Origin: Hanstruepera marina
Lineage (GTDB): Bacteria > Bacteroidota > Bacteroidia > Flavobacteriales > Flavobacteriaceae
Assembly: GCF_019880635.1 (NCBI RefSeq)
Contig: NZ_JAINVX010000001.1
Coordinates: forward strand, 1 to 64,000
Reading direction: 5' to 3'
Length of the DNA: 64,000 nt
The translations under genes and the position numbers were made by a program. The notes beneath the pieces are model-generated. The model saw only the letters and a program-made list of their open reading frames with translations, did not search any database and was not told the DNA's origin. Of the stretch, positions 22,726 through 37,294 are shown piece by piece; the stretch's first letter is position 1; each line of letters begins with the position of its first letter.

Positions 22726-23958
22726 ATGAATAGGGTTGTTATTACTGGAATGGGAATTTACTCGTGCATAGGTAAGAACCTTGCTGAAGTAAAGGAGTCA
22801 TTATACCAAGGCAAATCTGGTATTGTTATAGACAAAGAACGTATAGATTTTGGTTATCGTTCACCGTTAACTGGTATGGTAGAACCCCTTAATTTAAAAT
22901 CAATGCTCTCAAGAAGAGAGCGGATAAGTTTAGGACAAGAGGGTGAGTATGCTTATGTTGCTACAATTGAAGCTTTAGAAAACGCGAAAATAACTCAAGA
23001 TTTTTTAGACGCCAATGAAGTTGGTATCCTTTATGGCAATGATAGCACAGCACAATCTGTTGTTGACTCGGTTGATATTATTAAAGCTAAAAAAGACACA
23101 ACACTCGTAGGTTCTGGTGGCGTTTTTAAAAGTATGAATTCATCGGTTACCATGAATTTATCTACAATATTTAGACTAAAAGGTGTGAATTTCACAATAA
23201 GTGCAGCTTGTGCTAGTGGTTCACATGCTATTGGAATGGGTTATCATCTTATTAAAAGCGGCTTACAAGACTGCATTATTTGTGGTGGAGCTCAAGAGAT
23301 AAACCCAGTATCTATGGGTAGCTTTGATGGTTTAGGTGTATTCTCAACTCATGTCAACAATCCTAAAGAAGCTTCTAGGCCATTCGATAAAAACAGAGAT
23401 GGCCTGGTACCTAGTGGAGGAGCCGCTACATTAATTTTAGAATCTTATGAAAGTGCCATAAAACGAGGCGCACCTATTCTAGGCGAAATTGTTGGCTATG
23501 GATTTTCTTCAAATGGCGAACACATTTCCACACCAAATGTAGACGGTCCAGCAAGGGCTATGAAAATGGCACTTAATCAGGCTCAAGTAAATCCATCAGA
23601 CGTACAATATGTAAATGCCCACGCCACATCAACTCCAGTTGGGGATGCCAATGAAGCAAAAGCCATTTTCGAGGTGTTTGGAGAAAATGGTCCTTATGTT
23701 AGCTCAACAAAATCCATGACTGGCCATGAATGTTGGATGGCTGGAGCTAGTGAAGTAATCTACTCTATGCTCATGATGCAGCATGATTTTATTGCACCTA
23801 ACATTAATTTAGAAAATCCAGATGAAGATTCTTCAAAATTAAATTTAGTCAGTAAAACAATAGATAAAAAAATTGATGTATTTTTGTCCAATTCGTTTGG
23901 ATTTGGCGGAACAAATTCGGCGTTAATAATCAAAAAACAATCTAATGGTAATGGATAA
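22726..23958 (+). CDS. Beta-ketoacyl-ACP synthase (FabF-like), polyene elongation
   Basis: 410 residues with an intact Cys-His-His triad: Cys162 (ISAACASGSHA), His299 (VNAHATSTPVGD) and His334 (KSMTGHECWMAGA). It is a full-length condensing enzyme of the FabF/FabB class and resembles ApeO-type ketosynthases. Cys-Trp-Met after the second His (HECWMAG) replaces the usual small residues (HTLGAAG), which may shape the acyl tunnel. The ACP gene overlaps its 3' end. Confidence 0.92.
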   Translation: MNRVVITGMGIYSCIGKNLAEVKESLYQGKSGIVIDKERIDFGYRSPLTGMVEPLNLKSMLSRRERISLGQEGEYAYVATIEALENAKITQDFLDANEVGILYGNDSTAQSVVDSVDIIKAKKDTTLVGSGGVFKSMNSSVTMNLSTIFRLKGVNFTISAACASGSHAIGMGYHLIKSGLQDCIICGGAQEINPVSMGSFDGLGVFSTHVNNPKEASRPFDKNRDGLVPSGGAATLILESYESAIKRGAPILGEIVGYGFSSNGEHISTPNVDGPARAMKMALNQAQVNPSDVQYVNAHATSTPVGDANEAKAIFEVFGENGPYVSSTKSMTGHECWMAGASEVIYSMLMMQHDFIAPNINLENPDEDSSKLNLVSKTIDKKIDVFLSNSFGFGGTNSALIIKKQSNGNG

Positions 23959-31472: not shown

Positions 31473-31902
31473 CCCCAAAGAAATTACACACACTAGTGAA
31501 GTACGTGTTCGCTTTGTTGAAACTGACCCATTGGGAATTGTTTGGCATGGCAACTATATACAGTATTTTGAAGATGGTCGTGAGGCATTTGGCAGACATC
31601 ATGGTATTTCTTATTTAGACCAAAAAAAGTTTGGGTTTGCAACGCCTATAGTGAAATCAAGCACAGATCATAAACTACCCTTACGTTATGGTGATATAGC
31701 AACCATTAAAACAATTTATGTGGACAGTCCTTCTGCCAAAATGGTTTTTAGATACGAAATTTACAATCAAAACAATCAACTCGTCTGTACGGGTGAAACC
31801 ATTCAAGTATTTGTTGATAAAATTGGTGAAGGTGACCTGTGGTTAACCATTCCGCCATTTTTTAAAGATTGGAAACAAAAAGTAGGCTTACTGGATGAAT
31901 AA
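31450..31902 (+). CDS. 4HBT (YbgC-like) acyl thioesterase
   Basis: 150 residues; ATG 31450 overlaps the permease by 23 bases, ATG 31462 is an alternative. Single hot-dog domain with the 4-hydroxybenzoyl-CoA thioesterase motif ETDPLGIVWHGNYIQYFEDGR (Asp in the TDPLG segment as catalytic residue, HGNYxxYFEDGR as hallmark). In the cluster it may release the finished polyene acid, remove stalled chains or provide free acids for DAR synthesis. Confidence 0.88.
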   Translation: MKRKMPYNPKEITHTSEVRVRFVETDPLGIVWHGNYIQYFEDGREAFGRHHGISYLDQKKFGFATPIVKSSTDHKLPLRYGDIATIKTIYVDSPSAKMVFRYEIYNQNNQLVCTGETIQVFVDKIGEGDLWLTIPPFFKDWKQKVGLLDE

Positions 31903-33046
31903 AACCTATGTGTCATATAACAATATTATCTCATCACTGGGTTTTGATAGTGAAACCGTTGTTGAAAACATTCACAATGAAATTTCAGGATTAAAACTAA
32001 TAAACAACCAAGCTATTTTGCCGGAGTCGTTTTATTCTGCTTTAATCAATACTGGTGATTTAGAAAATGCTTTTCAAAAGCTTCATCCAAACCAAGATTA
32101 TACACGTCTTGAAAAAATGATGATAACTGCTTTACACAAGGTCATCAACGATTCTAATTTAGAGTTAAACAAGCGAGTTGGTTTAATTATCTCAACAACA
32201 AAAGGCAATATAGATGCATTGGACGATAATAATTCATTTCCAAAAGACCGCTCTTATTTAGATGTATTGGGAAAGGCTATCAAAAATTTTTTCAATTTTG
32301 AAAATGATGCCATTATTGTTTCCAACGCATGTGTATCTGGAGTTTTAGCTGTAGGCATAGCTAAACGCTTTATCTTGCAAGATGTTTACGACCACGTTTT
32401 TATAGTAAGTGGCGATGTGGTTTCAGAATTTATATTATCTGGATTCAATTCCTTTCAGGCCTTAAGTGACAAACCTTGCAAACCCTATGACAAAAACAGA
32501 ACAGGTATTAATATAGGTGAGGTGGCTGCAAGTGCTTTAGTAACAAAAAACAATACTAATCTTGCGGAGGAAGCCGTTGAAATTCTAGGTGAAAGCTCAT
32601 GTAATGATGCCAATCATATTTCAGGACCCTCTCGAACAGGCGAAGGACTCTATAGAAGCATTCAATCTGCTATGAAACAGGCAAAGATAAGTCCATCTGA
32701 AATCGATTTTATTTCAGCTCATGGCACAGCCACACTGTTTAATGATGAGATGGAGGCTATTGCCGTTAACCGCTGTAATATTCAGAATACTCCTCTAAAC
32801 AGCTTAAAAGGCTATTTTGGCCATACATTAGGTGCATCTGGATTATTAGAAACCATTATCGGGATGCATTCATTAAAAAACAACACGCTTTATGCATCAA
32901 AAGGTTTTGAAACATTAGGCGTTTCACAACCCTTAAATGTTATAAAACAAACAACAAAACCAACCAAACCGTTACAAACATTTCTTAAAACCGCTTCTGG
33001 TTTTGGAGGATGTAACACGGCAATAATTTATAAAACACTAACATAA
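31895..33046 (+). CDS. Beta-ketoacyl-ACP synthase, second full KS
   Basis: 383 residues, somewhat shorter than FabF, with a complete triad: Cys146 (VSNACVSGVLA), His276 (ISAHGTATLFND) and His310 (YFGHTLGASGLLE). The N-terminus is degenerate (YVSYNNIISSLG in place of VVVTGxG). Overlaps the thioesterase gene by 8 bases. It might start the polyene chain by accepting the coumaroyl group, or serve late elongation; three full KS genes must divide these tasks. Confidence 0.88.
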   Translation: MNKTYVSYNNIISSLGFDSETVVENIHNEISGLKLINNQAILPESFYSALINTGDLENAFQKLHPNQDYTRLEKMMITALHKVINDSNLELNKRVGLIISTTKGNIDALDDNNSFPKDRSYLDVLGKAIKNFFNFENDAIIVSNACVSGVLAVGIAKRFILQDVYDHVFIVSGDVVSEFILSGFNSFQALSDKPCKPYDKNRTGINIGEVAASALVTKNNTNLAEEAVEILGESSCNDANHISGPSRTGEGLYRSIQSAMKQAKISPSEIDFISAHGTATLFNDEMEAIAVNRCNIQNTPLNSLKGYFGHTLGASGLLETIIGMHSLKNNTLYASKGFETLGVSQPLNVIKQTTKPTKPLQTFLKTASGFGGCNTAIIYKTLT

Positions 33047-33047
33047 A

Positions 33048-34118
33048 ATGACGACAATGACAAAAAAACCAATTAGGGCCATTGATGCCGTTGAAGAAGC
33101 CGAGAGAATTGCCTTTGCTCCATTCGTATTTCAAGCCGTTGTAGCCCTGCGTAAACTAGGTATTTTTAATTTAATTTTTCAGTTTAGAAAAAAAGGAGGG
33201 ATTTCTATTGAAAAATTAGCTGAAGAATTAGAATTAAGTGTTTATGGTATTGGTGTTTTATTAGAAATAGCCGAAAGTTATAGAATAGTTGACCAAGATG
33301 ATTCTGGTAATTTTGAATTAACCACAACGGGTTACTTTTTAGCTTTTGACAGAACGGTTGATGTTAATATTAACTTTACCCAGGATGTATGCTATAAAGG
33401 GCTTTTCCATTTAACCGATGCAATTAAAACCGGTAAGCCTTCGGGTTTAAAGGAACTTGGTAACTGGAATACTATTTATGAGGGTCTTTCCGTACTTCCT
33501 AAAGATGTTCAAAAAGCTTGGTTTGAATTTGATCATCATTATTCAGATGATGTGTTTCAGGAAGCTTTAGAATTTGTGTTTAGAAATAACCCTAAAACTA
33601 TATATGACGTCGGAGCAAACACCGGGAAGTTCGCCATAAGCGGCAGTAAATATAATGACTCGGTTACCATAAAAATGGTGGACCTGCCTGGCCAATTAAG
33701 AATAGCACGTGCAAATGTTGAAGCTGCTGGTTTTGGAAATCGTGTAACACATCATGAAATAGATTGGTTATCTGAAAATCCACAATTACCAAAAGGCGCA
33801 GATGCTATTTGGATGAGTCAGTTTTTAGATTGTTTCTCTGAAGATGAAATCTTAACCATTCTAAAAGCTTGTGCCGATGCCGTAAATGACGATGGTGAAG
33901 TATTGATTATGGAAACGTTTACTGATAGACAGAGATTTGATAATGCAAAATTTGTTCTAGAAGCAACTTCATTATATTTTACCGTTATGGCCAATGGAAA
34001 CAGTAAAATGTATCCTTCAAAAGTATTGATAAGACTTATTGAGAAAGCAGGCTTGGCAATCACAGAAGATATTCAGGTTGGTGAATATCACACTATTTTA
34101 GCATGTAAGAAAAAGTAA
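33048..34118 (+). CDS. SAM-dependent methyltransferase with N-terminal winged helix
   Basis: 356 residues. N-terminal winged-helix dimerisation domain (about 10-100; VVALRKLGIFNLIF, EKLAEELELSVYGIGVLLE) and a C-terminal Rossmann domain with motif I YDVGANTGKFAI (about 186) and IWMSQFLDCFSEDEI. The layout is that of small-molecule O- and C-methyltransferases. Flexirubins carry a methyl group on the tyrosine-derived ring, so ring C-methylation is the likely reaction; O-methylation is possible. Confidence 0.85.
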   Translation: MTTMTKKPIRAIDAVEEAERIAFAPFVFQAVVALRKLGIFNLIFQFRKKGGISIEKLAEELELSVYGIGVLLEIAESYRIVDQDDSGNFELTTTGYFLAFDRTVDVNINFTQDVCYKGLFHLTDAIKTGKPSGLKELGNWNTIYEGLSVLPKDVQKAWFEFDHHYSDDVFQEALEFVFRNNPKTIYDVGANTGKFAISGSKYNDSVTIKMVDLPGQLRIARANVEAAGFGNRVTHHEIDWLSENPQLPKGADAIWMSQFLDCFSEDEILTILKACADAVNDDGEVLIMETFTDRQRFDNAKFVLEATSLYFTVMANGNSKMYPSKVLIRLIEKAGLAITEDIQVGEYHTILACKKK

Positions 34119-34120
34119 GA

Positions 34121-34741
34121 TTGAAAAACAACTATTACATATCTTCATATTGTCATATTAAAAACAATACTGTTAGGCTAAACGGAAATATCGTTTATCA
34201 TGATAATTCTGAAACCTTTTCAGAGTTTATAAAGAACCTTTATCGAGCAGAAAACACCAAATATGCCAAGTTTTTTAAAATGGATAACTTAAGTAAGTTA
34301 GCATTTATGGCGGCAGATATTATATTAAAAAATGAAAACCTCAATACGGATACTGACAATAATATTGCGCTGGTTTTTTCAAATAAGGCAGCTAGTTTAG
34401 ATACAGACCGTAAACATCAAACTTCCATACAAGACAAACAAGACTATTATCCTAGTCCTGCGGTATTTGTATATACTTTACCTAATATATGCTTAGGTGA
34501 GATTAGTATTAAATATAAACTGTTTTCTGAAAATAGTTTTTTTATCTTTGACAGCTTTAATGCAGACCATTTATTTAACTATTCAAATAGTTTGTTAGAT
34601 TTAAATAAATCGGAAGCTGTATTAAGCGGTTGGGTTGATTTTGATGATACTAATTATGAAGCTTTTTTATATTTAGTGTCTAGATCAGGAGGAGGTACAA
34701 TTCACGACAAACAAAACATAATAACACTATATAACAGATAA
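34121..34741 (+). CDS. Ketosynthase-like fragment without active-site cysteine (TTG start)
   Basis: 206 residues. There is no in-frame ATG before residue 54, so the gene most likely starts at TTG 34121, two bases after the methyltransferase stop. The sequence resembles half of a thiolase-fold KS: MDNLSKLAFMAADIILKN, then IALVFSNKAASLDTDRKH and PAVFVYTLPNICLGEISIKYKLFSENSFFI, where a KS would have its Cys nucleophile elbow. No Cys is present there and no HGTAT or GH motif follows. It is probably non-catalytic, a partner or chain-length-type subunit. Confidence 0.65.
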   Translation: MKNNYYISSYCHIKNNTVRLNGNIVYHDNSETFSEFIKNLYRAENTKYAKFFKMDNLSKLAFMAADIILKNENLNTDTDNNIALVFSNKAASLDTDRKHQTSIQDKQDYYPSPAVFVYTLPNICLGEISIKYKLFSENSFFIFDSFNADHLFNYSNSLLDLNKSEAVLSGWVDFDDTNYEAFLYLVSRSGGGTIHDKQNIITLYNR

Positions 34742-34742
34742 T

Positions 34743-35000
34743 ATGGACGCTTTAAAACAAGAATTAAAAGAAAACATCATAGAGCAATTAAACCTTGAAG
34801 ATATGACACCAGCTGATATTGCTGATGATGACATGCTTTTTGGTGATGGTTTAGGTTTAGACTCAATTGATGCATTGGAGCTTATTGTAATGCTTGATAA
34901 AAACTATGGTATTAAGTTAACAGATCCTAAAGAAGGGCGTACCATTTTTGAGTCAATAAACACAATGGCAGCTTATATTACTGAACACAGATCTAAATAA
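34743..35000 (+). CDS. Acyl carrier protein, second copy
   Basis: 85 residues. Phosphopantetheine attachment Ser41 in GLGLDSIDALEL, typical of type II PKS/FAS ACPs. It lies between the KS-like fragment and a KS/CLF pair, so it is the likely carrier of the growing aryl polyene. One base after the previous stop. Confidence 0.94.
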   Translation: MDALKQELKENIIEQLNLEDMTPADIADDDMLFGDGLGLDSIDALELIVMLDKNYGIKLTDPKEGRTIFESINTMAAYITEHRSK

Positions 35001-35027: not shown

Positions 35028-36230
35028 ATGAGTAGAGGAGTCGCAATAACTGGAATGGGTATAATTTCTGCCATTGGCAACAATGTCGCTGAAAATTATC
35101 AGGCTCTTATTTCAGAAACTAAAGGAATTTCAAGAATTTCAAAAATAAAAACTACGCACCAAAATGATATTATGGTTGGTGAAATAGCCTATACCAACCA
35201 AGAACTAGAAACTCTTTTAGGACTTACTCCAGACAACAATTATTCTAGAACAGCATTTCTTGGCGCCATTGCTGCTAAAGAAGCTATTAACGATGCCAAT
35301 ATATCTGATATCAACAAATACAAAACCGGTTTGGTTTCGGCTACTAGTGTTGGTGGTATGGATATGACTGAAAAGTATTATTATGAGTATCTGGATGATG
35401 CAACGCATAGAAAATATATTGCAGGACACAACGCTGGAGATTCTTCTCAAAAAATAGCTGAGCAACTAGGTATTGAGCAAAGTTTAGTTACTACAATAAG
35501 TACGGCTTGTTCATCTGCTGCCAATGCCATAATGTTAGGCGCAAGACTTATTAAATCAGGTCAGTTAGACCGAGTTGTCGTTGGTGGTTCAGACTGTTTG
35601 TCAAAATTTACCATAAACGGTTTTAAAACGTTAATGATATTATCAGACACCTACAACACTCCTTTTGACGATAATAGAAAAGGATTGAATTTAGGTGAAG
35701 CTGCGGCATTTCTGGTTTTAGAATCTGATGCCGTTGTTAATTCTGAAAACAAAAAGGTACTAGCCTATGTAAAAGGTTACGGCAACGCCAATGATGCGTT
35801 CCACCAAACAGCATCTTCCGACAATGGTGATGGCGCCACTTTAGCTATGGAAAAAGCATTACAAGTTGCCAATTTTTCATCTAAAGATATAGACTATATT
35901 AACGCACATGGTACTGCAACTGGTAATAATGATTTATCTGAAGGACGTGCTATAATTCGTGTGTTTGGAGAGAATGTTCCAGATTTCAGCTCTACTAAAG
36001 CTTACACGGGACATACGCTGGCTGCTGCTGGAGCTGTTGAAGCAGTATATTCTGTTTTAGCACTTCAAAATAATGTTATATTCCCCAATTTGAATTTCAA
36101 AACCCAAATGCAGGAATTTTCAATAACACCTCAACTTACATTTAAAGAAAAACCCTTACAGACCGTAATGTCTAATTCATTTGGATTTGGAGGAAATTGT
36201 TCAACTGTCATATTTTCAAAAGAAGCTTGA
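35028..36230 (+). CDS. Beta-ketoacyl-ACP synthase, third full KS (KS of the KS/CLF pair)
   Basis: 400 residues, intact triad: Cys161 (STACSSAANAIMLG), His294 (INAHGTATGNND) and His329 (YTGHTLAAAGAVE). It ends with MSNSFGFGGNCSTVIF, the normal KS C-terminus. Its stop overlaps the start of a Cys-less KS-like gene in a TGATG arrangement, like KS-alpha/KS-beta in type II PKS and ApeO/ApeC in aryl polyene clusters. Likely the main polyene elongation enzyme. Confidence 0.93.
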   Translation: MSRGVAITGMGIISAIGNNVAENYQALISETKGISRISKIKTTHQNDIMVGEIAYTNQELETLLGLTPDNNYSRTAFLGAIAAKEAINDANISDINKYKTGLVSATSVGGMDMTEKYYYEYLDDATHRKYIAGHNAGDSSQKIAEQLGIEQSLVTTISTACSSAANAIMLGARLIKSGQLDRVVVGGSDCLSKFTINGFKTLMILSDTYNTPFDDNRKGLNLGEAAAFLVLESDAVVNSENKKVLAYVKGYGNANDAFHQTASSDNGDGATLAMEKALQVANFSSKDIDYINAHGTATGNNDLSEGRAIIRVFGENVPDFSSTKAYTGHTLAAAGAVEAVYSVLALQNNVIFPNLNFKTQMQEFSITPQLTFKEKPLQTVMSNSFGFGGNCSTVIFSKEA

Positions 36231-37294
36231 TGAAAAGTGTATATATAAATAGTGTTGGGTCAATTTCTGTTCAAAAAACGTATGAAAGCAATAATTTTCT
36301 TGAAGAAATAGTTGAATATAATGATACCGTAATACCTGCCCAAGATCCTAATTATAAAGATTACATTCCTCCCGCTGCTGCCAGGCGTATGGCCAAGGGT
36401 ATAAAAATGGGCATTGTAGCATCAAAAATGGCACTGCAGGATGCAAGTTTAGAGCAAGTTGATGCCATAATAACTGGAACAGGTATGGGTTGCTTACGTG
36501 ATTCTGAAAAGTTTTTAAGTAATATTTTAGATAATGACGAGCAATATTTAACGCCTACGCCGTTTATTCAGTCGACTCACAATACGGTTGGTGGCCAAAT
36601 AGCTTTGGAATTACAATGTAAAGGGTATAACTTTACCTATGTGCATGGTAGCAATTCATTTGAATCTTGTTTAATAGATGCTAAATTACAGCTCGAACAA
36701 AACGAAGCCCAAAATATTTTAGTTGGCGGTGTAGATGAAATTGGCGAGCATACTGTAAAACTATTAAAATTAGTAGGCCAAATAAAAACAGAACCTGTTA
36801 ATAGTAGTGAGTTACTACTATCTAATACTAAAGGCGTTGTTTTTAGTGAAGGTGCTAATTTCTTTGTGTTTTCAAACCAACAACAAGCATCTAGTTATGC
36901 CGAAATTGTAGGTGTCGATATTTTTAACACCCTACCAATAGAATCTGTTTCTAATACAGCAGAAAGCTTTCTAAAAGACCATAATTTAAGTGTTAATGAT
37001 GTTGATTTAGTTATACTTGGTAATAATGGAGATGTTAGATTTGATGATTTTTACAACACATTAACTTCAGGCATTTTTAAAGAAACACAGCAAGCTTATT
37101 ACAAACATTTAAGTGGTGAATTTCATACAGCTTCATCCTTTGGGTTTTGGTTGGCTGCTAACATTTTAAAAGCGCAGTCGCTTCCAAAAGTGGTAAAACT
37201 TAATGATAAAAACACATCTCAATTTAAAAACATACTTTTATACAACCAGTTTTGTGGAGAAAATCATAGTTTCACTTTACTTCGTAAATGCTAA
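36230..37294 (+). CDS. Chain-length-factor-like KS subunit (no catalytic Cys)
   Basis: 354 residues from ATG 36230, which overlaps the upstream stop (TGATG); the longer frame reading back to 36197 is not needed. KS fold with EYIPPAAARRM-like DYIPPAAARRMAKGIKMG (about 44-61) and GTGMGCLRDSEKFL, but the nucleophile elbow reads TYVHGSNSFESCL around residue 140, without Cys, and the paired histidine motifs are absent. This fits a chain length factor that heterodimerises with the preceding KS. Confidence 0.85.
   Translation: MKSVYINSVGSISVQKTYESNNFLEEIVEYNDTVIPAQDPNYKDYIPPAAARRMAKGIKMGIVASKMALQDASLEQVDAIITGTGMGCLRDSEKFLSNILDNDEQYLTPTPFIQSTHNTVGGQIALELQCKGYNFTYVHGSNSFESCLIDAKLQLEQNEAQNILVGGVDEIGEHTVKLLKLVGQIKTEPVNSSELLLSNTKGVVFSEGANFFVFSNQQQASSYAEIVGVDIFNTLPIESVSNTAESFLKDHNLSVNDVDLVILGNNGDVRFDDFYNTLTSGIFKETQQAYYKHLSGEFHTASSFGFWLAANILKAQSLPKVVKLNDKNTSQFKNILLYNQFCGENHSFTLLRKC

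What the first reader, a model, noticed from the sequence alone, without database searches (positions are those of the whole stretch)
34121..34741. Half-size ketosynthase-like protein with TTG start and no nucleophile
206 residues that resemble the N-terminal half of a KS, without Cys and without histidine motifs, placed directly before an ACP and the KS/CLF pair. It adds a second non-catalytic KS-like subunit to a cluster that already has a chain length factor. It could cap the KS, control starter choice, or be a decaying copy.
Basis: partly seen in the sequence, partly recalled or inferred. Interest (0 to 1): 0.5.

Follow-up and report, generated by a model that had tools for sequence, protein, structure and literature searches.

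The report
Half-size partner subunit for pigment ketosynthase
This small protein is a conserved, non-catalytic half-size partner (chain-length-factor type) for one of the chain-building enzymes of the orange flexirubin pigment; the cluster appears to carry two such enzyme-partner pairs, and in some relatives each pair is fused into one protein.

Summary
The ORF is real and conserved: 206 aa, TTG start, 201 relatives found, uninterrupted in the 80 fetched. All 28 genomes (of 395 in the phylum) with the flexirubin LolB2 marker over cut-off encode it. Median dN/dS is 0.17: not a decaying copy. "No Cys" is literally wrong (C11, C124), but the nucleophile position is Phe and the catalytic His motifs are missing. 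By gene order it is FlxL, named a putative ketoacyl synthase in 2014. Its predicted fold is one thiolase half; top Foldseek hits are chain length factors (CLFs) ApeC and Iga12, with KSs close behind. Its partner is most likely the KS at 31895 (FlxI). In one family 12 of 22 fetched loci fuse FlxI to FlxL; 7 also fuse KS 35028 to its CLF; none is crossed. Partial distance correlations agree, and a read-through FlxI-FlxL model resembles the PfaC KS-CLF didomain. Verdict: a second, half-size CLF, a variant of a known kind (ApeC, Lysobacter ORF16). Complex and chain-length role are inferred.

The parts
34121..34741 (+). half-size CLF-like protein, FlxL by gene order (206 aa, TTG start)
31895..33046 (+). 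ketosynthase FlxI (by gene order), proposed partner; Cys and two His conserved in 135 of 135 rows
33048..34118 (+). FlxJ-like methyltransferase (NCBIfam FlxJ 442.7 bits, below its cut-off of 560), lies between the pair here, absent from this place in 11 of 80 related loci
34743..35000 (+). acyl carrier protein (FlxM by gene order)
35028..36230 (+). ketosynthase FlxN (by gene order), partner of the other CLF; Cys and two His conserved in 130 of 130 rows
36230..37294 (+). full-size CLF FlxO (by gene order); likely ATG start at 36230 overlapping the KS stop (TGATG), not the TTG at 36197
22726..23958 (+). FabB-type ketosynthase (FlxC by gene order), third KS of the cluster

Best explanation
The protein is FlxL, a catalytically silent half-size chain length factor: one N-terminal thiolase-type subdomain that pairs with the active ketosynthase FlxI (31895-33046) as a KS-CLF heterodimer. 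It would (i) stand in for the second KS monomer at the dimer interface and close FlxI's acyl tunnel, and (ii) supply part of the acyl-carrier-protein docking surface through K50 and K53. The cluster therefore encodes two separate KS-CLF pairs, FlxI-FlxL and FlxN-FlxO, besides the FabB-type FlxC. Shown here: conservation, purifying selection, predicted fold, lack of the nucleophile, gene pairing and natural fusions. Inferred: the physical complex, the tunnel and ACP roles, and that the pair elongates the polyene arm over its own range of chain lengths.
For: Predicted single thiolase half (pLDDT 87.7, pTM 0.84). Foldseek ranks 1-3 are 7f28_C (the same entry's chain A, listed as a two-chain sequence, is matched by an ApeC), Iga12 (6kxe_B) and ApeC (6qsp_B). 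The one PDB hit of the 52-row profile at E<=1 is Iga12, E=0.005. Profile-profile: FlxO 95.3%, 175 columns; FlxI, FlxN, FlxC sets 0.3-1.8%; unrelated cluster genes 0.1-3.8%. FlxI+FlxL fused in 12 of 22 fetched loci of family f11, KS35028+CLF fused in 7 of the 22, no crossed fusion; at least 5 changes fused/separate on a quick tree. In the 11 of 80 loci without the methyltransferase, KS and half gene lie next to each other (gap at most 269 nt), with a 4-nt overlap in 5. Partial distance correlation in 77 loci: FlxL-FlxI 0.60, FlxL-KS35028 0.24; CLF-KS35028 0.57, CLF-FlxI -0.06; FlxL favours FlxI in 200 of 200 resamples, and in 192 of 200 over all 108 loci. Read-through FlxI-FlxL model pTM 0.89; Foldseek rank 1 is PfaC KS-CLF, TMq 0.74, against 0.55-0.58 for the other 49 chains listed. 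K53 in 136 of 136 and K50 Lys/Arg in 136 of 136 rows.
Against: No physical data. FabF-type KSs score almost as well in Foldseek (rank 4, E 4.5e-5) and rank above Iga12 in VIA, where ApeC is not among the 50 rows. Sequence link to ApeC is weak (hhalign 20%), and PF13723 is matched by 1 of 52 members, at E=0.27. The AF2 pair model is an artificial read-through without a control using the other KS; KS dimer geometry may be learned generically; the PfaC match has rmsd 8.5 over 757 columns, and VIA listed only single KS chains for it. Raw distance correlations do not discriminate over 108 loci (0.918 FlxI, 0.919 KS35028, 0.915 CLF), and the partial ones are closer there (0.54 against 0.37). Over all unsaturated pairs FlxL's median dN/dS (0.167) is higher than FlxI's (0.123) and KS35028's (0.062). 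In G017 the half gene lies about 400 kb from the FlxI-like KS. In the window the half gene touches the ACP and KS35028 block, not FlxI.
Confidence: 0.85

Rival explanations
1. FlxL is an auxiliary or capping subunit of the neighbouring FlxN-FlxO (35028/36230) pair or of the ACP.
For: It lies next to the ACP and KS35028 in most of the 80 loci; it keeps some partial correlation with KS35028 (0.24 in 77 loci, 0.37 in 108).
Against: In the 22 fetched f11 loci it is fused only to FlxI, while KS35028 fuses with its own CLF; FlxL-CLF partial correlation is 0.02 in 77 loci and 0.21 in 108; where the methyltransferase is missing, the KS before it is FlxI.
Confidence: 0.08
2. FlxL pairs with FlxI but acts as a gatekeeper that selects the 4-coumaroyl starter rather than setting chain length (overlaps with the best explanation on the pairing).
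For: Pairing as above; ApeR, a different KS, is reported as required for initiation in aryl polyene synthesis (PMC8253772, passage), so division of labour between KSs is known.
Against: I identified no sequence feature that points to starter binding; nothing was tested here on substrates.
Confidence: 0.2
3. FlxL is a decaying ketosynthase copy.
For: Half size, no nucleophile, TTG start.
Against: Present in 28 of 28 marker-positive genomes, uninterrupted in the 80 fetched, dN/dS 0.107 against FlxI 0.102 on shared pairs, 40 invariant columns.
Confidence: 0.01

Closest known systems
ApeC, CLF of aryl polyene clusters (PDB 6QSP, 7F28; PF13723)
   Same: About half the size of its KS, one thiolase fold, heterodimer with ApeO (PMC8358021, passages seen); ranks 1 and 3 in Foldseek.
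   Different: FlxL does not match PF13723 over cut-off and is nearer to FlxO by profile; here it is the second CLF of the cluster, with its own KS.
Lysobacter enzymogenes ORF16 (xanthomonadin-type pigment)
   Same: 275-aa protein like the N-terminal half of a CLF, reported as always accompanying its KS ORF17; deletion abolishes pigment (PMC3691225, abstract and passages).
   Different: ORF16 has an essential Gln (Q166); FlxL has Phe at the nucleophile position in 107 of 136 rows. ORF16 itself was not compared by sequence.
Iga12, ishigamide CLF (6KXD/E/F)
   Same: The one PDB sequence hit of the FlxL profile, KMD motif aligned.
   Different: Full-size CLF (378-residue chain).
PfaC KS-CLF didomain (6RIW)
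   Same: KS and CLF in one chain; best Foldseek match of the FlxI-FlxL read-through model.
   Different: A 923-residue chain, so a much larger CLF part; PfaC as part of PUFA synthases is recalled and appears in listings. In the window FlxI and FlxL are separate genes.
FlxL of Chitinophaga pinensis
   Same: Gene order in L112 (KS-methyltransferase-414 aa-half-ACP-KS-CLF-deacetylase) fits the letters and the five KS-type genes FlxC, I, L, N, O of PMC3992019.
   Different: Identity by gene order only; the C. pinensis protein itself was not fetched, and the passages I saw call it a putative beta-ketoacyl synthase, not a CLF.

Membership tests
Chain length factor (KS-beta) of a type II PKS | thiolase/KS fold | tested here: met
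   AF2 pLDDT 87.7; Foldseek E about 3e-5 to ApeC and Iga12; VIA Z 12.8-13.0 to Iga12, rmsd 5.0-5.2 A over 190-192 residues
Chain length factor (KS-beta) of a type II PKS | no catalytic Cys | tested here: met
   Cys at position 146 in 1 of 136 rows, L113; position taken from the profile alignment with FlxO
Chain length factor (KS-beta) of a type II PKS | genetic pairing with one cognate active KS | tested here: met
   fusions, overlaps, partial correlations; exception G017, unlinked
Chain length factor (KS-beta) of a type II PKS | physical heterodimer | not testable with these tools
   only an AF2 read-through model, pTM 0.89
Chain length factor (KS-beta) of a type II PKS | sets product length | not testable with these tools
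   needs reconstitution or mutants
ApeC / PF13723 | match to PF13723 over cut-off | tested here: not met
   1 of 52 members, E=0.27; Klebsiella ApeC 233 bits as positive control
ApeC / PF13723 | half size, one thiolase unit | tested here: met
   179-239 aa in 123 separate proteins; model
Lysobacter ORF16 type | conserved Gln at the KS nucleophile region | tested here: not met
   position 146 is F, L, K, P, Y or I in 132 of 136 rows, gap in 1, Cys in 1, 2 not printed; that Q166 falls at this position is taken from the paper's text, not aligned here
Active ketosynthase | Cys-His-His triad | tested here: not met
   no HGT or GHT motif in the 206 aa; nucleophile position Phe

The most novel reading that the evidence does not exclude
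Flexirubin synthases are built from two orthogonal KS-CLF machines in one cluster, each with its own half- or full-size silent partner. The half-size form would have arisen more than once (FlxL here; and FlxO in fused relatives, where matches end by profile position 194 of 354), showing that a CLF needs only its N-terminal thiolase half to set chain length and dock the carrier protein.
Probability: 0.5. Interest if true: 0.65.

Novelty: new variant of a known kind. Interest (0 to 1): 0.5.

Why it matters
It assigns a partner and a testable role to a gene that I found named only as a putative ketoacyl synthase, and explains why flexirubin clusters hold five such KS-like genes: one FabB-type KS and two KS-CLF pairs. 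The natural double fusions are ready-made single-chain KS-half-CLF proteins for structure and reconstitution, and raise the question how two KS-CLF pairs share the making of one polyene.

Tried and rejected
Tried without gain: phmmer of the single protein against PDB (two hits at E 0.75 and 1.5); Pfam on the window protein; alignment A2 for the pair model, discarded because half rows aligned onto the KS part; VIA on the pair model, whose 50 listed rows cover the KS only; ApeC not among the 50 VIA rows of the half model; literature searches for flexirubin with KS-CLF wording (one and zero papers). Rejected: decay; KS35028 as main partner; membership of PF13723.

Dropped rows: weak half-profile hits in four genomes (E 2e-5 to 7e-4, frames of 419-444 aa, taken as ordinary KSs) and G451 in family f11. 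Two LolB2 matches under cut-off are outside the count of 28: G394 has the half protein (fused), G326 has no match. G501, a further long frame (580 aa), was not fetched, so 22 of 23 strong f11 loci were checked. L135 and L142, with no KS35028-CLF block after the fusion in the fetched stretch, were left out of the second count; that tree has 12 of 32 inner branches under 80% support. Partial correlations used 108 of 136 half-gene rows, 77 in the narrow set. KS35028-profile hits under 300 bits were relabelled FlxC-like.

Full report
Observation. ORF 34121-34741 (+) encodes 206 aa from a TTG, 2 nt after the stop of a FlxJ-like methyltransferase. It has two Cys (C11, C124), so "without Cys" is wrong, but no HGT/GHT motifs. 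It sits in a flexirubin cluster with FlxA, FlxB, DarB, DarG, DarH, LolA2 and LolB2 matches over NCBIfam cut-offs; the methyltransferase matches FlxJ below its cut-off.

Conservation. One genome scan gave 201 relatives; the best 80 were fetched, 54-93% identical to the window protein over the alignment, none interrupted. In 67 of 80 loci the order TE-KS31895-methyltransferase-half-ACP-KS35028-CLF-deacetylase is complete; of the other 13, 11 lack the methyltransferase there (2 of these also lack later genes) and 2 have it but no match after KS35028. Independently of the half gene, LolB2 marks 28 of 395 phylum genomes over cut-off, the window's own among them; all 28 have the half protein at E<=6.1e-34, one of them (G238) as a fusion. 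In all, 34 of 395 genomes have a strong half match. Median dN/dS is 0.167 over 519 unsaturated pairs (FlxI 0.123 over 272, KS35028 0.062 over 274) and 0.107 on 125 shared pairs, against 0.102 for FlxI, 0.049 for KS35028 and 0.076 for the CLF.

What it is. The AF2 model (52 sequences, pLDDT 87.7, pTM 0.84) is one thiolase half. Foldseek ranks 7f28_C, Iga12 and ApeC first (E 2.9e-5 to 3.8e-5) with a FabF-type KS fourth (4.5e-5); 7f28_A is matched by a Klebsiella ApeC at 1.2e-15. By VIA, KSs rank above Iga12 (Z 14.4 against 13.0), so the fold alone does not separate CLF from KS. The sequence profile does better: only Iga12 in PDB at E<=1, and hhalign favours FlxO (95.3%) over ApeC (20.3%), the three KS sets (0.3-1.8%) and three unrelated cluster genes (0.1-3.8%). 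The Aureispira relative passes the PF00109 KS cut-off (31.0 against 20.8 bits). The nucleophile position is Phe in 107 of 136 rows.

Name. In L112 and L113 a 414-417-aa gene lies between methyltransferase and half gene; in L112 it is halogenase/FAD-oxidoreductase-like. The order then fits the letters flxI-flxP of C. pinensis, where FlxC, I, L, N, O are the putative ketoacyl synthases (PMC3992019, passages seen). By order the protein is FlxL. I saw no text giving FlxL a CLF role; searches bearing on this were made, in open-access papers only; I read passages of six papers.

Partner. In family f11, 23 of 151 genomes have a strong match, 13 of them in frames of 567-702 aa. Of the 22 fetched, 12 are KS31895+half fusions; 7 of these loci also fuse KS35028 with its CLF; none is crossed. 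A quick tree of 35 rows, with 12 of 32 inner branches weakly supported, needs at least 5 changes between fused and separate. In the 7 fused CLFs only profile positions within 12-194 of 354 match, so that CLF too is half size there. In the 11 of 80 loci without the methyltransferase, KS31895 and the half gene lie next to each other, overlapping by 4 nt in 5; Aureispira and Persicobacter plasmids show the same adjacency. Raw distance correlations do not discriminate over 108 loci (0.918, 0.919). Partial ones pair half with KS31895 (0.60 against 0.24) and CLF with KS35028 (0.57 against -0.06) in 77 loci; over all 108 loci the first contrast is weaker (0.54 against 0.37). Related sequences make these correlations descriptive, not a formal test.

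Complex. A read-through of the two neighbouring genes of L075 with 21 similar rows gave pLDDT 84.9 and pTM 0.89. Foldseek's best match is the PfaC KS-CLF didomain (TMq 0.74, rmsd 8.5 over 757 columns) against TMq 0.55-0.58 for the other 49 chains listed. VIA listed only single KS chains. This supports a KS-CLF-like arrangement but has no control with the other KS.

Mechanism. FlxI keeps its Cys and two His in 135 of 135 rows, so the pair has one active site. K53 is invariant and K50 is Lys or Arg in 136 of 136; the KMD motif aligns with KMD in Iga12. FabF Lys65, Arg68 and Lys69 contact the ACP (PMC7138838, passage); that K53 corresponds to Lys69 rests on my recall of the FabF sequence. In 30 of 56 fetched stretches no DarB, DarG or DarH relative was found by tblastn; 28 of these, the 22 f11 loci among them, still hold the FlxI-FlxL pair. 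This points to the polyene arm rather than the resorcinol arm; the rest of those genomes was not searched.

Verdict. A half-size CLF, partner of FlxI: a variant of a known kind (ApeC; Lysobacter ORF16, PMC3691225, abstract and passages), apparently new in being a second CLF with its own KS inside one cluster.

Noticed in passing
36197-36230: The CLF ORF listed from TTG 36197 more likely starts at ATG 36230, overlapping the KS stop (TGATG), giving 354 aa; this suggests translational coupling of that KS-CLF pair.
   Followed up: yes
L129, L130, L137, L140, L143, L145, L146: Loci with two parallel KS-CLF fusions (FlxI-FlxL and FlxN-FlxO) around one ACP; the fused FlxO is cut to its N-terminal half.
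   Followed up: partly
L136:7117-7743: A separate FlxO-type CLF of only 208 aa (profile positions 34-198 of 354), half size without a fusion.
   Followed up: no
L135, L142: FlxI-FlxL fusion without ACP, KS35028 or CLF after it in the fetched stretch; not looked for elsewhere in those genomes.
   Followed up: no
L117 (G017): Divergent half gene beside a methyltransferase and a 410-aa gene, with the FlxI-like KS about 400 kb away on the same contig.
   Followed up: partly
L112:9595-10839: Halogenase/FAD-oxidoreductase-like gene (PF04820, 87.6 bits) between methyltransferase and half gene, at the FlxK position, absent from this place in the window; might tailor the aryl head group.
   Followed up: no
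L123, L126: Flexirubin-type polyene clusters carried on plasmids of Aureispira anguillae and Persicobacter psychrovividus, without DarB, DarG or DarH relatives in the fetched stretches.
   Followed up: partly
L113: The one half protein of 136 rows with a Cys at the nucleophile position.
   Followed up: no
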